Positions 914 through 6,156 of a stretch of DNA of 6,156 bases are shown here, piece after piece (position 1 is the first letter of the stretch; each line of letters opens with the position of its first letter). The position numbers and the translations under genes are program-made. Source of the stretch: Oscillospiraceae bacterium. GTDB taxonomy: Bacteria; Bacillota; Clostridia; Oscillospirales; Oscillospiraceae. Below the pieces are notes generated by a model. That model did not search any database and was not told the DNA's origin. It saw only the letters and a program-made list of their open reading frames with translations. The stretch covers positions 1-6,156 of the forward strand of contig JAITGH010000100.1 in the NCBI GenBank assembly GCA_031280855.1. The letters are read 5' to 3'.

Positions 914-943
914 TTCACACTTCTGCGGCTGAGCACATACGAT
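914..943 (+). promoter_or_regulatory. candidate promoter of the amidase_6 gene
   Basis: TTCACA (914-919) and TACGAT (938-943) are separated by 18 bp. They match the sigma-A hexamers at 5/6 and 4/6 positions. Transcription would begin near 950 and give a leader of about 43 nt to the ATG at 993. The boxes are weak. A second, poorer option uses TATACC near 899-904. Confidence 0.35.
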
Positions 944-992
944 GGAGAAAGGCAGAGCGCGACCACACCCCCATATAAAGGAGCTGACGACC

Positions 993-1463
993 ATGCCGTA
1001 TAATCCCGCCGCCGCCATCGCCTACGCTCATCGCTGGGCGTTTGCGAGGAATCCCCGTCACGCCGATTTCAGCGACCTCGGCGGAGACTGCACCAACTTT
1101 ATCTCCCAATGCCTCAACGCCGGAGGATTCGCGATGAACTACACGCCCAACTCCGGTTGGTTCTACACGTCGCTTGACTCGCGTTCACCATCTTGGAGCG
1201 GCGTCGAGGAGCTGTACGCGTTCGCAATCTCCAATCGCGGCGACGGACCTCAAGCCGTGGTCGGCGAACCGACGCAAGTTCAGCCGGGCGACGTCATTCA
1301 GCTAAGCTTCGACGGAACCGCGTTCGCGCACTCACTTTTCGTCGTTGGGCACGACGCGTCCGGAACTCCGCTTGTCGCGACTCATACATATGACAGCGAT
1401 AATCGTCCGCTTTCCAGCTACATGTACAGCAAGGCAAGAGCGATGCTGTTCAATCGCGAGTAA
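993..1463 (+). CDS. amidase_6 domain protein (putative Cys/His hydrolase)
   Basis: This 156-residue protein is essentially one amidase_6 domain (PF12671-type). The domain is usually found at the C-terminus of larger Bacillota proteins and is thought to be a papain-like-fold amide hydrolase. Family hallmarks run in order: YNPAAAIAYAHRWA near the start, GGDCTNFISQC (30-40) with the presumed nucleophile Cys33, NSGWFY and SPSWSGVEELY in the middle, PGDVIQL (98-104), AHSLFVVG (112-119) with the presumed catalytic His113, then ATHTYD (129-134) and RPLSSY. The start at 993 is chosen because AAGGAG (978-983) lies 9 nt upstream and the family homology begins at residue 2. An in-frame ATG at 942 would add 17 unrelated residues and overlaps the candidate -10. 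No signal peptide or membrane segment is seen, so the protein is either cytoplasmic or exported in an unrecognised way. It is probably monocistronic and ends at a strong hairpin. Substrate unknown. Confidence 0.9.
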   Translation: MPYNPAAAIAYAHRWAFARNPRHADFSDLGGDCTNFISQCLNAGGFAMNYTPNSGWFYTSLDSRSPSWSGVEELYAFAISNRGDGPQAVVGEPTQVQPGDVIQLSFDGTAFAHSLFVVGHDASGTPLVATHTYDSDNRPLSSYMYSKARAMLFNRE

Positions 1464-1516: not shown

Positions 1517-2596
1517 CTACGAGCCGTAACGCTCTCGAGACGCTTGGTACAGTGCGGCGCGGTACGCGGGCGTCAACACCGACGCGCCGTACGCGTTGAG
1601 ATACGACGGCTTCTTCGGATCGCAGAACTTGCCGGCGTACTCCTTTGCGGCCGCAATTTGATCGGACTCGGAGGTCTCCGCCGCATTGAACAACGTCGGA
1701 GTTACTCCGACAAGGATCTTATCGCCGTAAAGCTCATAGATCTTGTGGGTGTCGTTCATCAGCTGACCGCCCCAACTGTCCCATCCGGCGGCAATGAAGT
1801 TCGGAACCTGCTTCAAGGCCTGTCCGCAACTGTGCAGCTCGCAAAACTTGCCTTGCGCGTGCAGATAATCCGTAACCTTGCGCATCGCGGGGACAATCAC
1901 TTCGCCCGCAAGCACCGGTGAGAAGAACGTCTCTTTCTGCGAACCCCAATCGTCGTGGATGCAGAAGCCGTCAATCTCCGGGAAGTACTCCAGGTATTTC
2001 GCGAAGATCTTGATGTACTGGTCGCTTAACGCGTTGAAAAGCTCCTTGACCGCATCGACCTGATCTTCGTCGACCATTGCGAATGCGGCGTTCTCGAACT
2101 CCATAAACGAGATCAGCCGTTCGAACCACCCGTTAAGGAACCAGCACACGACGTACTTGTCTCCGGCCAGGAACTCCGCGTTTGCCTGTCTCGCGCCCTC
2201 CCAGTCCCATTTGTCGATGTCCGGCCACTTGAGCTTAGTTTTCCACTCGTTCGCGTCGGAGAGGAACGGCTCGCCGGGACGAACCATCGAGCCGCCGACT
2301 TGAGGAACGTACTCCCACTCGATACCGAACATGTCGGGACCTCCGCCCGAGCCGTCCAATCGACCGGTGCCGTCGATAACGAACGCTCTCGCGATGTTAT
2401 CCGGGTTTACCCTCGGTGAGAACATCGTGGATTCAAGCCCCGTGATCTGCCAGATCGGCTCACGGCGATACAGCGCTCTCATCCCTTCGCGCATCGTAAC
2501 CGGGAACGCGTACGCGGGCGTTCCTGCACCGCCCATGAAACCGGGGGTTTCGCTTACGACCGTAAGCTCTTTCGGGTCAAACTTCGGGATTGCCAT
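1517..2596 (-). CDS. URO-D superfamily protein, MtaA/CmuA-like putative methyltransferase
   Basis: This 359-residue protein belongs to the uroporphyrinogen decarboxylase (URO-D) superfamily. It falls in the branch that includes corrinoid-dependent methyltransferases and many uncharacterised demethylases of anaerobes. Visible marks are VTMREGMRALYRREP near residues 33-47, FCIHDDWGSQ (211-220), ELHSCG (253-258), GWDSWGGQ and GVTPTL (297-302). His255-X-Cys257 with Cys325 further on fits the HxC...C zinc set that activates a thiol or corrinoid methyl acceptor in MtaA-type enzymes. Cys325 as third ligand is my inference. True HemE N-terminal motifs (the RQAGR region) are absent, so a heme-pathway role is unlikely. 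The ATG at 2596 has AAGGAGG 8 nt upstream. An in-frame upstream ATG near 2623 would start with MNVHKEEII, which encodes the ribosome site itself. No corrinoid-protein or partner gene is adjacent, so the methyl donor and acceptor cannot be named. Confidence 0.9.
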   Translation of the reverse strand: MAIPKFDPKELTVVSETPGFMGGAGTPAYAFPVTMREGMRALYRREPIWQITGLESTMFSPRVNPDNIARAFVIDGTGRLDGSGGGPDMFGIEWEYVPQVGGSMVRPGEPFLSDANEWKTKLKWPDIDKWDWEGARQANAEFLAGDKYVVCWFLNGWFERLISFMEFENAAFAMVDEDQVDAVKELFNALSDQYIKIFAKYLEYFPEIDGFCIHDDWGSQKETFFSPVLAGEVIVPAMRKVTDYLHAQGKFCELHSCGQALKQVPNFIAAGWDSWGGQLMNDTHKIYELYGDKILVGVTPTLFNAAETSESDQIAAAKEYAGKFCDPKKPSYLNAYGASVLTPAYRAALYQASRERYGS

Positions 2597-2610
2597 TATG
2601 ATTTCCTCCT

Positions 2611-2624
2611 TGTGAACATTCACA
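2611..2624. promoter_or_regulatory. 14-bp palindrome in the URO-D gene leader (operator candidate)
   Basis: TGTGAACATTCACA is a dyad with 6-bp arms around two central bases. It lies about +10 to +23 from the predicted start and overlaps the first base of the Shine-Dalgarno AAGGAGG. It resembles a CRP/FNR-family half-site pair (TGTGA...TCACA), but the spacing is 4 bp rather than the 6 bp of CRP. The regulator is therefore unassigned. In mRNA it could fold only a weak 5-bp hairpin. Confidence 0.5.
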
Positions 2625-3121: not shown

Positions 3122-3430
3122 ATGAGCACATTCAGTGACAACGTCCGCAAAATCGTCACCGCGATTCCGTACGGCAAGGTTATGAGCTACGGTCAAGTCG
3201 CTGCGCTTGCGGGTAATCCGCGGTCATCTCGCGTCGTGGGCTGGGTCATGCACGCCAACGACGACTACAGGAAACTTCCGTGTTACCGCGTCGTCTTCAA
3301 GGACGGCTCGTTGCCCGAGGGTTACGTTTTCGGCGGCGCGGAAGTCCAGCGCAATCTCCTCGCGGCGGAGGGTGTTACCTTCACGCCCGATGGTAAAGTA
3401 GATTTAGCCTTACACTCCGCAATCTCCTAA
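3122..3430 (+). CDS. MGMT-family alkyltransferase-like protein with PCYR active site
   Basis: This 102-residue protein is a single C-terminal-type domain of O6-alkylguanine-DNA alkyltransferases (MGMT/Ogt), or of the short alkyltransferase-like proteins that recognise alkylated guanine. Family marks are IPYGKVMSYGQVAALAG (15-31), the arginine finger Arg37 in SSRVVGW, HAN (44-46), LPCYRVV (52-58) with acceptor Cys54, then GYVFGG and LLAAEGV with Glu83. The usual His after the cysteine, part of the Cys-His-Glu activation network, is Tyr55 (codon TAC). The Cys is retained, unlike ATL proteins of the E. coli YbaZ type, which carry Trp there. Whether it transfers alkyl groups or only binds lesions is open. 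The ATG at 3122 has no convincing Shine-Dalgarno (only GAG at 3108-3110) and follows a large hairpin. No separate promoter is visible, so read-through or coupling from the upstream gene is likely. Confidence 0.9.
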   Translation: MSTFSDNVRKIVTAIPYGKVMSYGQVAALAGNPRSSRVVGWVMHANDDYRKLPCYRVVFKDGSLPEGYVFGGAEVQRNLLAAEGVTFTPDGKVDLALHSAIS

Positions 3431-3480: not shown

Positions 3481-4623
3481 CTAGCGCGGCGGCATCCCGA
3501 TTGCTCGCAGCACGCGGTACAATAGCACGCAAGCCTCCGCACGCGTTGCGCCCGATTGTGGTTCATAGCGCAAGTCTGCGGTGCCCTCAATTAGCCCGGC
3601 GCGGTATAGCGTCCTGATCGCTCCGACCGCGTACTCGGACGCGGCGTCAATATCTTCCGTAAGCATGAACGGGCGCACGGGCTCAAGCCAGTAACCTTTC
3701 GCGGCAAGCGCACGTAATAACATGACCGCCATCTGCTCTCGCGTCACGGGTTCCGCCGGACGGAACTCCCCATTCGGGTACCCGACCACGATCCCCAACT
3801 TCGCAAGCGTCGTAACGTCGGCGTAGAACCAATCGTCCGGCGTAACGTCGGAGAACGCAGCACTGTGCGAGCCCGCAATATCCGGAAGTGATAGCGCGAC
3901 CGCCATGAACCGCGCAAATTGCGCCCGAGTTAGTTGCGCGTTCGGTGCGAACTTGCCGTCGCCGACTCCCATGATGCCGTAGAACGTCGCGAAGTACTCG
4001 ATCTCCTTGCGCGCCCACTCTGCGTCTCCAAGGTCGCTGAACGTCACTTTGGACGGAGTCGAATCCCCCGTAGGCTCGGATTCATCGCTGTCGCCGTTAT
4101 CGGTGGAGTAACCGCCGCCGCTCGAGCCGCCGGATCCGGTCGGGCTCGGAGTAGCCGACGGCGCAGGCGACGTGTCCGGCGGCGGGGGCTCAATCTTGCT
4201 CAACGCCGTGCTCATGCTGAACAGCTCTGTATCAATCTGGTCGCCGCTATCTAGCAAACGGTAGGCATAGCGATGGGCGACGTTCAACTCGGCGAGCGAG
4301 CTTTCGAGACCACGCACCCTAATCACACCAACGATTAGGGTGCCTGCGTCGTATGCGTTCATATTGGTGAACAGACCAAGCCACACTCCGTCAGCCGTAG
4401 TTTTATGGACTACCCTGCCGCCTACGTCCGCATTGAACTCGACGAACTCGCAATCGGCGGGAAGCTCCACGAAGAACTCGAGCCCTGCCGCACTACCATC
4501 CAGCGTAACTTCAAGCTTGAATTCTACCGATTCGGACGCTCGAGCGACCATTGAGACAAGTGCGGCGATCGCAATCATCAAGATCGCCGCGCTTACCGAT
4601 CGCCGCAGACTAGTCCGCGCCAT
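3481..4623 (-). CDS. secreted protein with cohesin-like domain and three SLH repeats
   Basis: This 380-residue wall-anchored protein has a signal peptide (basic MARTSLRR, hydrophobic core to about residue 25, cleavage probably after Ala29 in ARA-SES). Residues 31-142 form a beta-rich domain, with AGLEFFVELP and GTLIVGVIRV strands resembling a diverged cohesin fold. A Pro/Ser/Thr/Gly linker spans about 145-193. Three SLH repeats follow at about 194-245, 257-306 and 321-373, carrying the motifs TRAQ, TREQ and TRAE. SLH triplets bind pyruvylated secondary cell-wall polymer, so the C-terminus should anchor the protein to the wall. The ATG at 4623 is chosen because the signal peptide begins there. 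A TTG at 4653 would add ten non-signal residues. The start overlaps the end of the upstream gene by 14 nt and has no close Shine-Dalgarno (AAGGGG is 16 nt away), which points to translational coupling. The SLH call is firm; the cohesin-like call is tentative. Confidence 0.9.
   Translation of the reverse strand: MARTSLRRSVSAAILMIAIAALVSMVARASESVEFKLEVTLDGSAAGLEFFVELPADCEFVEFNADVGGRVVHKTTADGVWLGLFTNMNAYDAGTLIVGVIRVRGLESSLAELNVAHRYAYRLLDSGDQIDTELFSMSTALSKIEPPPPDTSPAPSATPSPTGSGGSSGGGYSTDNGDSDESEPTGDSTPSKVTFSDLGDAEWARKEIEYFATFYGIMGVGDGKFAPNAQLTRAQFARFMAVALSLPDIAGSHSAAFSDVTPDDWFYADVTTLAKLGIVVGYPNGEFRPAEPVTREQMAVMLLRALAAKGYWLEPVRPFMLTEDIDAASEYAVGAIRTLYRAGLIEGTADLRYEPQSGATRAEACVLLYRVLRAIGMPPR
4314..4343. 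repeat. intragenic 11-bp perfect inverted repeat
   Basis: GCACCCTAATC (4314-4324) and GATTAGGGTGC (4333-4343) are exact reverse complements around an 8-nt loop. They lie inside the sequence encoding the N-terminal domain of the SLH protein (residues about 94-103, around TLIVGVIRV). The right arm's complement includes an AGG arginine codon, while CGN codons are usual here. It could form a stable mRNA hairpin or be chance. Confidence 0.6.
4562..4606. repeat. GCGGCGATC-type direct and inverted repeats in signal-peptide codons
   Basis: GCGGCGATC (4562-4570) is the exact inverse of GATCGCCGC, which occurs twice, at 4582-4590 and 4598-4606. The two pairings are mutually exclusive hairpins beginning about 17 nt into the SLH gene message. 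The alternating Ala/Ile/Arg codons of the signal peptide could explain the repeats without a regulatory role. Confidence 0.5.
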
Positions 4624-6156
4624 CGTCGGAGGTGTCAATCCCCTTGCTCTCAAATGCGGCCAAGAGAAGTAGACAATCTTTGATTGTAATCACGTTGTCG
4701 GAATCCCAATCCGCAGGTTTTGCACTCGACCACAAGGCATCGGACGAGGTCACGCGGTACCAGCTTTGAAGTGTCGCAATATCGGCGAGCGACAGAACGT
4801 TATCGTTATTCAGGTCGAGATTCGGCGCGTAGTCCGAGATTCCATCGGTTATCGTGATGCTCGCGGCGGCAGTAGTAATCTCGCACTTCGCGTCAGCGCC
4901 GTCGCCTACTGCGGCAATTACGGCGATCGTTGCGGATTTCAGCGTGACGGTTGCCGAGTCGGCTGTCGAGCCATCAAGTACGCGGAAACGTAAATACAGC
5001 ACGGAATCTTCCGATTCATCGGAAGCGAACGCACCCAATAGTGATACGTAGTCCGAACTCATCTGACCCGCCGTCACGGTAGCGGTGCCGCCTGATTCGC
5101 TTGCCGTCAGCACCGTGAACGGACTCGCTGTTTCCGCGTACTCGAAATCAAGCACGTCCGGGTTAAACTCGAACTTCATCGAGAGATTCGCGATCGACGG
5201 CTTATCAGTCAGCAATACCTTGAATAGTACGGTGCTGCCGCGGGTTAACACGGAGTTAGCCGGAGGCATGATCTTTGCGTTCGCATTGTTCGGAATAATT
5301 GTCGGAGATTTTACGGTACTCGCGGCTTTTGTTAGATTCAGCGCGGCATCACGCAGCATAGCGGTCGCGTCGCTAACCATGGCTGCGGTAGCGTCGGCAT
5401 TCGCAAGAACGAGCTCGGCAGCATTATACGCGGACTCGAACGCCGTCCACGACTGCGTATCGTATCGCCCGTCGCCGTTACCGCCGTTGATGAACGGTTC
5501 CGCACGGTCTAACGCGAGCTCGAGTTCGAACTTATCGACCGCCGCGCCTATCGGAGGTTCCGGCGGAAGCTCCGGCTCGAACTCTTCGTCGTCAACGGCG
5601 ATATACGCGCCTTGTGGCGAAATCGAGTACTGCTTACCACTAAGCGTGAACGTCGCCAAATCGCCGGGAACCTTGACAATCGCGAGCTCTCCCGCCGCCA
5701 GCGTCAACGTGTTCTCAGACGCGGAGCCGCCCGAGACCGACGCGCATCCCGGCTTCGTCAAAAGGTCGAGCGTCAGCGTCGCTCCAACCTCCGAATATAG
5801 CGCTACGCAGCGTGACGTGTCGCCTTCAACCCCGAAAAACACGGGGATCGGCGAGTCTCCGGTTTGCGCAGTTATGGTGCCGTATTGACCGGAATAAGTT
5901 CCGTTTTCGCGAATGAACCCAATTGCAGTCTCAAAGTGCTGAATGACGACTTCCCCCTCTGGGACGTTGGGAACAATCGTCGCGACGCCGTTTTGCAGTG
6001 TGAGTCCGGTTTCAATTTCATTAACGTTCACCGCGATGCCGGAACCCGAAACCGGCGAGATCGGCAGCAGCGTTATGCTGACCGTTCCGACTGCGTTCGC
6101 GGCAATCAAGCGGGTCACGAAAACAGCGACGACTACAACCAGCAGGGAAAACGTCG
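4610..6156 (-). CDS. exported FIVAR / cohesin-like / dockerin protein (N-terminus outside window)
   Basis: The frame is open to the right edge. The 12 codons before the GTG at 6118 read TFSLLVVVVAVF, the hydrophobic core of a signal peptide. The real start is therefore outside the window and the GTG is internal. Counting from that GTG as residue 1, about 10-170 is an unrecognised beta-rich domain, followed by an acidic Pro/Glu linker (176-190). A FIVAR-like helical domain lies at about 194-265 (SWTAFESAYNAAELVLANAD). A cohesin-like domain at about 289-402 contains SIANLSMKFEFNPDVLDF and SVLYLRFRVL. A dockerin lies at about 435-490. Its two Ca loops carry Asp435, Asn437, Asp439, Asp446 and Asp470, Asp472, Asp474, Asp481. 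Dockerins bind cohesins of scaffold or anchoring proteins, so this protein could both accept and donate such contacts. It precedes the SLH gene, overlapping it by 14 nt, in one operon. Its promoter is outside the window. Confidence 0.88.
   Translation of the reverse strand, partial: TFSLLVVVVAVFVTRLIAANAVGTVSITLLPISPVSGSGIAVNVNEIETGLTLQNGVATIVPNVPEGEVVIQHFETAIGFIRENGTYSGQYGTITAQTGDSPIPVFFGVEGDTSRCVALYSEVGATLTLDLLTKPGCASVSGGSASENTLTLAAGELAIVKVPGDLATFTLSGKQYSISPQGAYIAVDDEEFEPELPPEPPIGAAVDKFELELALDRAEPFINGGNGDGRYDTQSWTAFESAYNAAELVLANADATAAMVSDATAMLRDAALNLTKAASTVKSPTIIPNNANAKIMPPANSVLTRGSTVLFKVLLTDKPSIANLSMKFEFNPDVLDFEYAETASPFTVLTASESGGTATVTAGQMSSDYVSLLGAFASDESEDSVLYLRFRVLDGSTADSATVTLKSATIAVIAAVGDGADAKCEITTAAASITITDGISDYAPNLDLNNDNVLSLADIATLQSWYRVTSSDALWSSAKPADWDSDNVITIKDCLLLLAAFESKGIDTSDDGAD
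4649..4816 (-). other. dockerin-coding segment with two intact Ca-binding repeats
   Basis: Both repeats fit the DxNxD...D / DxDxD...D pattern with all acidic ligands present. The usual Gly at loop position 6 is Asn in both copies. Positions 10-11, which often set partner specificity, are Leu-Ala and Ile-Lys rather than the Ser/Thr pairs of classical cellulosomal type I dockerins. The spacer between repeats (SWYRVTSSDALWSSAKPA) is long. Confidence 0.85.
4913..5254 (-). other. cohesin-like domain-coding segment
   Basis: A roughly 114-residue beta-sandwich pattern opens with STVLFKVLLTDKPSIANLSM. It continues with the strand FEFNPDVLDFEYAE, the acidic turn ASDESEDSVLYLRFRVL and a closing strand SATVTLKSATIAV. 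This order is characteristic of cohesin domains (PF00963-like). The binding partner cannot be read from the sequence. Confidence 0.7.

What the first reader, a model, noticed from the sequence alone, without database searches (positions are those of the whole stretch)
3481..6156. Two-gene surface module: cohesin-like/dockerin protein coupled to a cohesin-like/SLH protein
Two overlapping genes encode a secreted protein carrying both a cohesin-like module and a dockerin, and an SLH-anchored protein whose N-terminal domain also looks cohesin-like. No enzyme module is visible in either. If the dockerin of the first binds the N-terminal domain of the second, or its own cohesin-like domain, the pair would form an anchored and possibly self-polymerising scaffold. 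That differs from enzyme-loaded cellulosomes. Domain identities are from established families; the pairing is inference.
Basis: partly seen in the sequence, partly recalled or inferred. Interest (0 to 1): 0.72.

Follow-up and report, generated by a model that had tools for sequence, protein, structure and literature searches.

The report
Enzyme-free cohesin–dockerin surface docking pair
Two overlapping genes in an uncultured bacterium encode a secreted protein with a cohesin and a dockerin and a cell-wall-anchoring (SLH) protein predicted to carry a second, divergent cohesin, so the first would likely dock onto the second and form a surface assembly in which no enzyme part is visible.

Summary
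P0001 (window 4610-6154, minus strand, start cut by the contig end) has a beta-rich N-terminal region, FIVAR, a cohesin and a C-terminal dockerin. P0002 (3481-4623, 14-bp overlap) has an N-terminal domain, a linker and three SLH repeats. P0001's cohesin passes Pfam's cut-off; its dockerin has two calcium loops, kept in the genus (one substitution, D to N, in G002). P0002's N-domain matches no Pfam cohesin, but its predicted fold ranks cohesins first, and it links by profile to cohesin-SLH proteins of another genus that lie beside phosphatase-FIVAR-dockerin genes. Both protein types occur in 5 of 6 genus genomes, neither in the sixth; they are adjacent in 2. In 60 cohesin loci of the family, 15 of 21 cohesin-SLH genes have a tight dockerin neighbour, against 19 of 414 other ORFs. 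So the pair is an enzyme-free version of a recurrent dockerin / anchored-cohesin unit, likely secreted ligand plus surface receptor. Docking, self-polymerisation and cargo are untested. Monovalent cohesin-dockerin adaptors plus SLH scaffoldins are already described for Paenibacillus guangzhouensis (PMC11557425). New variant of a known kind.

The parts
4610..6154 (-). P0001 gene: secreted FIVAR-cohesin-dockerin protein, 514 aa visible, 5' end missing at the contig edge
5579..6154 (-). N-terminal region of P0001: hydrophobic signal-like stretch, then a beta-rich region of unknown family, shared by genus relatives
   Evidence: no Pfam hit for the window copy; three single-member weak hits among relatives
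5336..5464 (-). FIVAR domain (Pfam PF07554, E 4.4e-6, 27.7 bits, just under its cut-off of 29.2), residues 231-273
4841..5269 (-). cohesin of P0001, residues 296-438
4640..4837 (-). dockerin of P0001, residues 440-505, two calcium loops, next to the cohesin with a very short linker
3481..4623 (-). P0002 gene: signal-like N-terminus, N-domain, linker, three SLH repeats, 380 aa; overlaps P0001 by 14 bases
4195..4533 (-). N-terminal domain of P0002, residues about 31-143, predicted divergent cohesin fold
3499..4047 (-). three SLH repeats of P0002, residues about 193-375

Best explanation
P0001 and P0002 form a two-gene module in which P0002 is an SLH protein whose N-terminal domain is predicted to be a divergent cohesin, and the dockerin of secreted P0001 would likely dock into that domain, so that P0001 would be held on the cell surface. 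Shown: the cohesin, FIVAR and dockerin of P0001, the SLH repeats of P0002, the gene overlap, co-occurrence of the two protein types in the genus, and a CsaB gene (recalled: it pyruvylates the wall polymer that SLH repeats bind) in the same genome. Inferred: that P0002's N-domain is a working cohesin; that P0001's dockerin binds it with calcium; that P0001's own cohesin, which has no other detectable dockerin partner in the window genome or in the 91%-complete relative G001, takes up a second P0001 (a short chain) or a dockerin protein from elsewhere. The displayed function would lie in P0001's N-terminal beta-rich region and FIVAR domain, probably adhesion or substrate contact rather than catalysis.
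Against: P0002's N-domain has no Pfam cohesin match in 5 of 5 members; direct profile comparison gives 0.4%, 1.4-2.7% and 3.3-6.3%; its scores against the cohesin model are within the range of shuffled sequences. No Foldseek match reaches E 0.001. The AF2 model is single-sequence and the other four of five models have pLDDT 54-37. In 3 of 5 genus genomes the two genes lie on different contigs and no SLH gene was seen next to the P0001-type gene. G000 is 64% complete and G004 84%, so absences are soft; G005, which has the pair, gave no pyruvyl-transferase match (72% complete). No interface was modelled.
Confidence: 0.6

Rival explanations
1. Cis closure: the dockerin of P0001 folds back on its own cohesin, making a locked C-terminal unit; P0002 is an unrelated surface protein.
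For: Cohesin and dockerin lie side by side in one chain in all 5 genus members.
Against: The linker is very short: cohesin and dockerin model ends are 0-4 residues apart in the 5 genus members, and 25 of 39 cohesin-then-dockerin pairs in the 74 loci scanned are within 10 residues, which should hinder folding back (inference; no coordinates tested). Dockerin genes sit beside cohesin-SLH genes far more often than beside other ORFs, including proteins with a dockerin and no detected cohesin of their own.
Confidence: 0.15
2. P0002's N-domain is a carbohydrate- or ligand-binding beta-sandwich of similar fold, not a dockerin receptor; the two genes share only secretion and timing.
For: No direct cohesin match; cellulose-binding modules, YcnI and integrin domains also appear lower in the fold lists.
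Against: Cohesins lead both fold lists; transitive profile link to cohesin-SLH anchors beside dockerin genes; co-occurrence with the dockerin protein.
Confidence: 0.15
3. Open adaptor: P0001 is a monovalent adaptor scaffoldin whose cohesin recruits dockerin enzymes, encoded elsewhere in the genome or by neighbours. This can be true together with docking to P0002.
For: Cohesin+dockerin is the architecture of adaptor scaffoldins; G002, G003 and G005 have 4, 6 and 4 dockerin matches in all, their P0001-type ones included; G004, which lacks the pair, encodes a dockerin protein that by eye reads like a metallophosphatase. Scavenging of foreign dockerins was suggested for P. guangzhouensis.
Against: No other dockerin detected in G000 or in 91%-complete G001. 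Most other G003 and G005 dockerins seen are of a different sequence type, read by eye.
Confidence: 0.25

Closest known systems
Monovalent cohesin-dockerin adaptors plus SLH-anchoring scaffoldins of Paenibacillus guangzhouensis (PMC11557425, section 15)
   Same: Single cohesin-dockerin pair per secreted protein, SLH-anchored cohesin proteins as possible docking sites, few other dockerins
   Different: There 28 adaptors, many with a glycoside hydrolase, and five anchors in one genome; here one adaptor and one anchor found, overlapping genes, no enzyme visible, and an anchor domain too divergent for Pfam Cohesin
Archaeoglobus fulgidus non-cellulosomal cohesin-dockerin proteins (PDB 2xdh; PMC9012536, passages, says archaeal versions bind, citing Bayer 1999 and Haimovitz 2008, not read; the neighbouring pair AF2375/AF2376 is recalled)
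   Same: A small set outside any cellulosome; 2xdh is among the closest folds to the P0002 N-domain
   Different: Archaeal; no SLH anchor or FIVAR recalled
Clostridium perfringens cohesin-like modules of secreted glycoside hydrolases (PDB 2jh2, 2w1n, 2o4e, 2vo8; a FIVAR-dockerin partner in the same species is recalled)
   Same: Closest cohesin folds to the P0002 N-domain by Foldseek; FIVAR next to a dockerin (recalled)
   Different: Attached to glycoside hydrolases, no SLH receptor named in the rows seen; here no enzyme
Cellulosomal anchoring scaffoldins such as OlpA of C. thermocellum (architecture recalled; its cohesin 3ul4 is rank 22)
   Same: One cohesin plus SLH repeats as cell-surface receptor
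   Different: No dockerin enzymes and no multi-cohesin scaffoldin detected in this genome (64% complete)

Membership tests
Cohesin (P0001 residues 296-438) | Significant match to the cohesin profile | tested here: met
   PF00963 25.1 bits against cut-off 24.1 for the isolated piece; 41.7 bits and 97.1% against cohesins outside the genus
Cohesin (P0001 residues 296-438) | Binds a dockerin | not testable with these tools
   No complex prediction tool; single-chain model too poor
Dockerin (P0001 residues 440-505) | Two F-hand-like calcium loops with acidic residues at positions 1 and 12, separated by a helix | tested here: met
   Both loops complete in the window sequence; in relatives the second loop is invariant and the first has N at position 1 in G002. 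The helix was not tested
Dockerin (P0001 residues 440-505) | Match to Pfam Dockerin_1 | tested here: inconclusive
   Window copy not matched; 4 of 5 genus members matched at E <= 1, best 2.6e-4
Cohesin (P0002 N-domain) | Direct match to the cohesin profile | tested here: not met
   0 of 5 members in Pfam; hhalign 0.4-6.3%
Cohesin (P0002 N-domain) | Nine-strand cohesin fold | tested here: inconclusive
   Moderate single-sequence model; cohesins rank first
Cohesin (P0002 N-domain) | Linked to cohesins through intermediate sequences | tested here: met
   P0002-N profile to G102/G177 (hhalign 81.6%); G102/G177 to a cohesin model built without them 31-33 bits
SLH-anchored surface protein (P0002) | SLH repeats and a pyruvylation enzyme in the genome | tested here: met
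   Three SLH; CsaB TIGR03609 221.5 bits against 213.1 in G000
Cellulosome | Multi-cohesin scaffoldin | tested here: not met
   One cohesin match in G000 (genome 64% complete)
Cellulosome | Dockerin-bearing plant-cell-wall enzymes | tested here: not met
   The only dockerin detected in G000 is that of P0001 (genome 64% complete); no enzyme domain in P0001

The most novel reading that the evidence does not exclude
A minimal self-building surface fibre: a single dockerin recognises two cohesins, the anchored one in P0002 and the one in P0001 itself, so P0001 docks to the wall and then adds further P0001 units head to tail, making an enzyme-free cohesin-dockerin filament that displays its N-terminal domain.
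Probability: 0.2. Interest if true: 0.8.

Novelty: new variant of a known kind. Interest (0 to 1): 0.5.

Why it matters
Cohesins and dockerins are known mainly for loading enzymes on cellulosomes; their function elsewhere was called not known in a 2017 review (PMC5244752, passage). A genome with one detectable dockerin and two cohesin-type domains (G001, 91% complete) is close to the smallest set in which the question 'what do these modules do without enzymes?' can be tested with two proteins. The survey also shows that dockerin genes next to cohesin-SLH genes are a recurrent unit in this bacterial family, and that an anchor's cohesin-type domain can be too divergent for Pfam, so such receptors are probably under-counted.

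Tried and rejected
Protein searches against 5.8 billion proteins with P0002 residues 1-150, P0001 and the 5-member alignment found no relative beyond the window's own proteins, save two weak hits (P0004 E 6.8e-5, 2% of the query covered; P0005 E 3.1e-4, 9%) (in 14 and 45 only the 7993 best candidates were scored), so no permitted alignment was available for structure prediction. The genome-contig search gave 4 loci, all matching the SLH part only. Sequence search of solved structures with the cohesin+dockerin profile gave weak dockerin matches (2y3n E 0.0011; 3kcp, 2b59, 5g5d_B at 0.012-0.037; EF-hand proteins interleaved) and one cohesin chain (5g5d_A, E 0.47); with the P0002 N-domain none. 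The AF2 model of the cohesin-dockerin piece was poor (pLDDT 45) and not used. Two further weak hits of the P0002-N profile in the own genome (C115, C24; E 0.008 and 0.012) lie in unrelated-looking frames and were taken as chance. Pooling P0002 N-domains with G102/G177 gave a weaker cohesin match (22.8%) than G102/G177 alone (91.9%) or with G011 added (88.4%), and the four-member anchor set matched P0002-N at only 47.3%; the pooled scores are not used as proof.

My first profile comparison of P0001's cohesin (98.7-98.9%) was partly circular: the 100-row cohesin set held the five genus cohesins themselves. Repeated without any row of the genus it gives 97.1%, E 7e-11, and with the 18 Pfam seeds alone 96.8%; all five genus members stay above the shuffled controls, the weakest narrowly with the seed model (9.6 bits against 7.1).

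Survey limits: 60 stretches picked by hand from the better-scoring places (47 genomes of the 80 with a match); 3 of 60 gave no cohesin or dockerin ORF (L123, L135, L141); ORFs were taken greedily by length; several loci share a genus; a domain counted at E <= 1e-3 in models trained on these same loci. Only 43 of 66 dockerin ORFs hold a strict two-loop motif, against 1 of 467 other ORFs. The Fisher value (3e-14 for cohesin-SLH) is therefore only indicative.

Rejected: cellulosome (no enzymes, no multi-cohesin protein detected in this 64% genome); chance frames (relatives in 4 other genomes). Promoter scan: 4 weak matches (1.2 expected), no terminator; no weight given. Peer 2009 (PMC3035643) is not held and was not read.
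Full report
What is there. The window is the whole contig C127 of an incomplete genome (G000, 1.28 Mb, 212 contigs, 64% complete). Two minus-strand frames overlap by 14 bases: P0001 (4610-6154, its start lost at the contig edge) and P0002 (3481-4623). P0001 carries a signal-like hydrophobic stretch, a beta-rich region with no Pfam family shared among relatives, FIVAR, cohesin and dockerin. P0002 has a signal-like N-terminus, a domain of about 115 residues, a Pro/Ser/Gly linker and three SLH repeats.

Cohesin and dockerin of P0001. A whole-protein Pfam scan shows neither, and the Pfam searches of the own genome with Dockerin_1 and Cohesin are empty. Cut out, the cohesin passes Pfam's cut-off (25.1 bits against 24.1); at E <= 1, 5 of 5 genus members match Cohesin and 4 of 5 match Dockerin_1. 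Against 88 cohesins of the family from outside the genus, the window cohesin scores 41.7 bits, the other four 22-31, the best of the shuffled controls 10.0; the profile comparison gives 97.1%, E 7e-11 (the higher figure was partly circular). The dockerin has two canonical calcium loops; across five members the second loop keeps all its D positions, the first has N for D at position 1 in G002, and a Y-R...W..A stretch between them is invariant. The cohesin and dockerin models end within 0-4 residues of each other in all five.

Distribution. In 60 genomes searched, the own one included, matches over most of P0001 lie only in the genus: G000, G001, G002, G003, G005, not G004; three further matches, all in G058, cover the FIVAR region alone. 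The P0002 type is found in the same five genomes and not in G004 (there G003 at E 2.4e-15 and G002 at 1.9e-8 were not in the model); four of the five align along their whole length, SLH part included, while G005's copy is cut by a contig end, so its SLH part is not seen. The genes touch in G000 and G005 and lie on different contigs in G001, G002 and G003, with no SLH gene next to the P0001-type gene. With broader models (A10, A11, which include the window's and G005's own copies), G000 and G001 have one dockerin and one cohesin each, both in the P0001-type protein; G002, G003, G004 and G005 have 4, 6, 2 and 4 dockerin matches and 6, 2, 4 and 2 cohesin matches. The cohesin model did not find the P0002-type domains, so other divergent cohesins may be missed.

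A family-wide arrangement. Pfam Cohesin occurs in 80 of 300 genomes of the family. In 60 stretches picked from that list (47 genomes, 30 genera), my own cohesin, dockerin and SLH models give 34 cohesin+dockerin, 31 dockerin, 22 cohesin, 21 cohesin+SLH, 10 SLH, 1 cohesin+dockerin+SLH and 414 other ORFs. A dockerin-bearing gene lies within 300 bp on the same strand for 15 of 21 cohesin+SLH, 15 of 22 cohesin, 6 of 10 SLH and 19 of 414 other ORFs; by genus 13 of 16, 11 of 15 and 4 of 7. With only the 43 of 66 dockerins that hold a strict two-loop motif the figures are 8 of 21, 10 of 22, 4 of 10 and 10 of 414. Outside the survey the same order is seen in G011 (phosphatase-dockerin, then an SLH protein) and a related one in G005 C238 (FIVAR-Cna-cohesin-dockerin, then a small protein with a C-terminal membrane stretch and no Pfam match). 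So dockerin / anchored-cohesin gene pairs are a recurrent unit of this family, some with an enzyme; the window genus has a version without a visible enzyme.

Mechanism. The most economical reading is ligand and receptor: P0001 secreted, its dockerin taken up by the P0002 N-domain, P0002 held by SLH on a pyruvylated wall polymer (CsaB present in G000). Shown are the parts, their genomic coupling and the anchoring enzyme; inferred is the binding. The free cohesin of P0001 has no other detected dockerin partner in G000 or G001, which leaves chain growth, cis closure or foreign dockerins; the very short linker argues against cis closure (inference). I give chain growth 0.2.

Known ground. PMC11557425 (abstract, outline and section 15 read) describes 28 monovalent cohesin-dockerin adaptors and five SLH-anchoring scaffoldins in P. 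guangzhouensis and suggests that they could dock to give a surface distinct from conventional cellulosomes; it also raises scavenging. PMC9012536 (passages) says that archaeal versions bind, that earlier-known archaea lacked multi-cohesin scaffoldins, and that some ANME archaea have proteins with a dockerin and several cohesins. PMC5244752 (passages) says that the function outside cellulosomes is not known. PMC12484212 (passages) gives the roles of anchoring and adaptor scaffoldins. PMC9705933 and PMC6394049 (passages) only use the A. fulgidus pair as a tool. Seven full-text searches (listed 20 of 47, 13 of 13, 22 of 22, 2 of 2, 0 of 0, 7 of 7, 12 of 17) showed no title or abstract start on this pair; only open-licence papers are held. 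The concept is therefore known; the enzyme-free, overlapping, one-adaptor-one-anchor form with a divergent anchor domain is the new variant.

Changes after re-checking: the first profile figure for the P0001 cohesin was replaced by a non-circular one, the strict-motif recount of the survey was added, and the substitution in G002's first loop is now stated.

Noticed in passing
window 3122-3430 (+): Small MGMT-type DNA-binding-domain protein (PF01035, E 2.9e-25), 102 aa, convergent with P0002.
   Followed up: no
window 1517-2623 (-): A 368-aa protein with no Pfam match at E <= 1 that by eye resembles uroporphyrinogen decarboxylase / corrinoid methyltransferase-like proteins.
   Followed up: no
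window 942-1463 (+): Amidase_6 protein (PF12671, E 8.1e-39) near the surface pair.
   Followed up: no
L169 2996-5494 and 5582-6805; L170 2870-5347 and 5435-6691; L057 2846-5686 and 5724-7562: Purple-acid-phosphatase-type proteins ending in a dockerin, each followed at once by an SLH protein: what looks like a phosphatase display unit in two other genera.
   Followed up: partly
L132 1819-12015 (G004): The one genus member without the pair has a four-gene locus: SLH protein, metallophosphatase-like (by eye) dockerin protein, cohesin-dockerin protein, two-cohesin SLH protein.
   Followed up: partly
L186 134-1372 and 1486-1779 (G005 C205): Another dockerin end followed by a cohesin-SLH protein in the same genus.
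   Followed up: no
L020 8329-11181 (G001) and L050 772-3312 (G003): Where it is not linked to the cohesin-dockerin gene, the P0002-type gene follows a gene that by eye encodes an AMP-forming ligase in both genomes.
   Followed up: no
L180, L182, L185, L188 (G003): G003 has dockerins of another sequence type (YRxK-like after the first loop) on a leucine-rich-repeat-like and other proteins, unlike the window's type (by eye).
   Followed up: no
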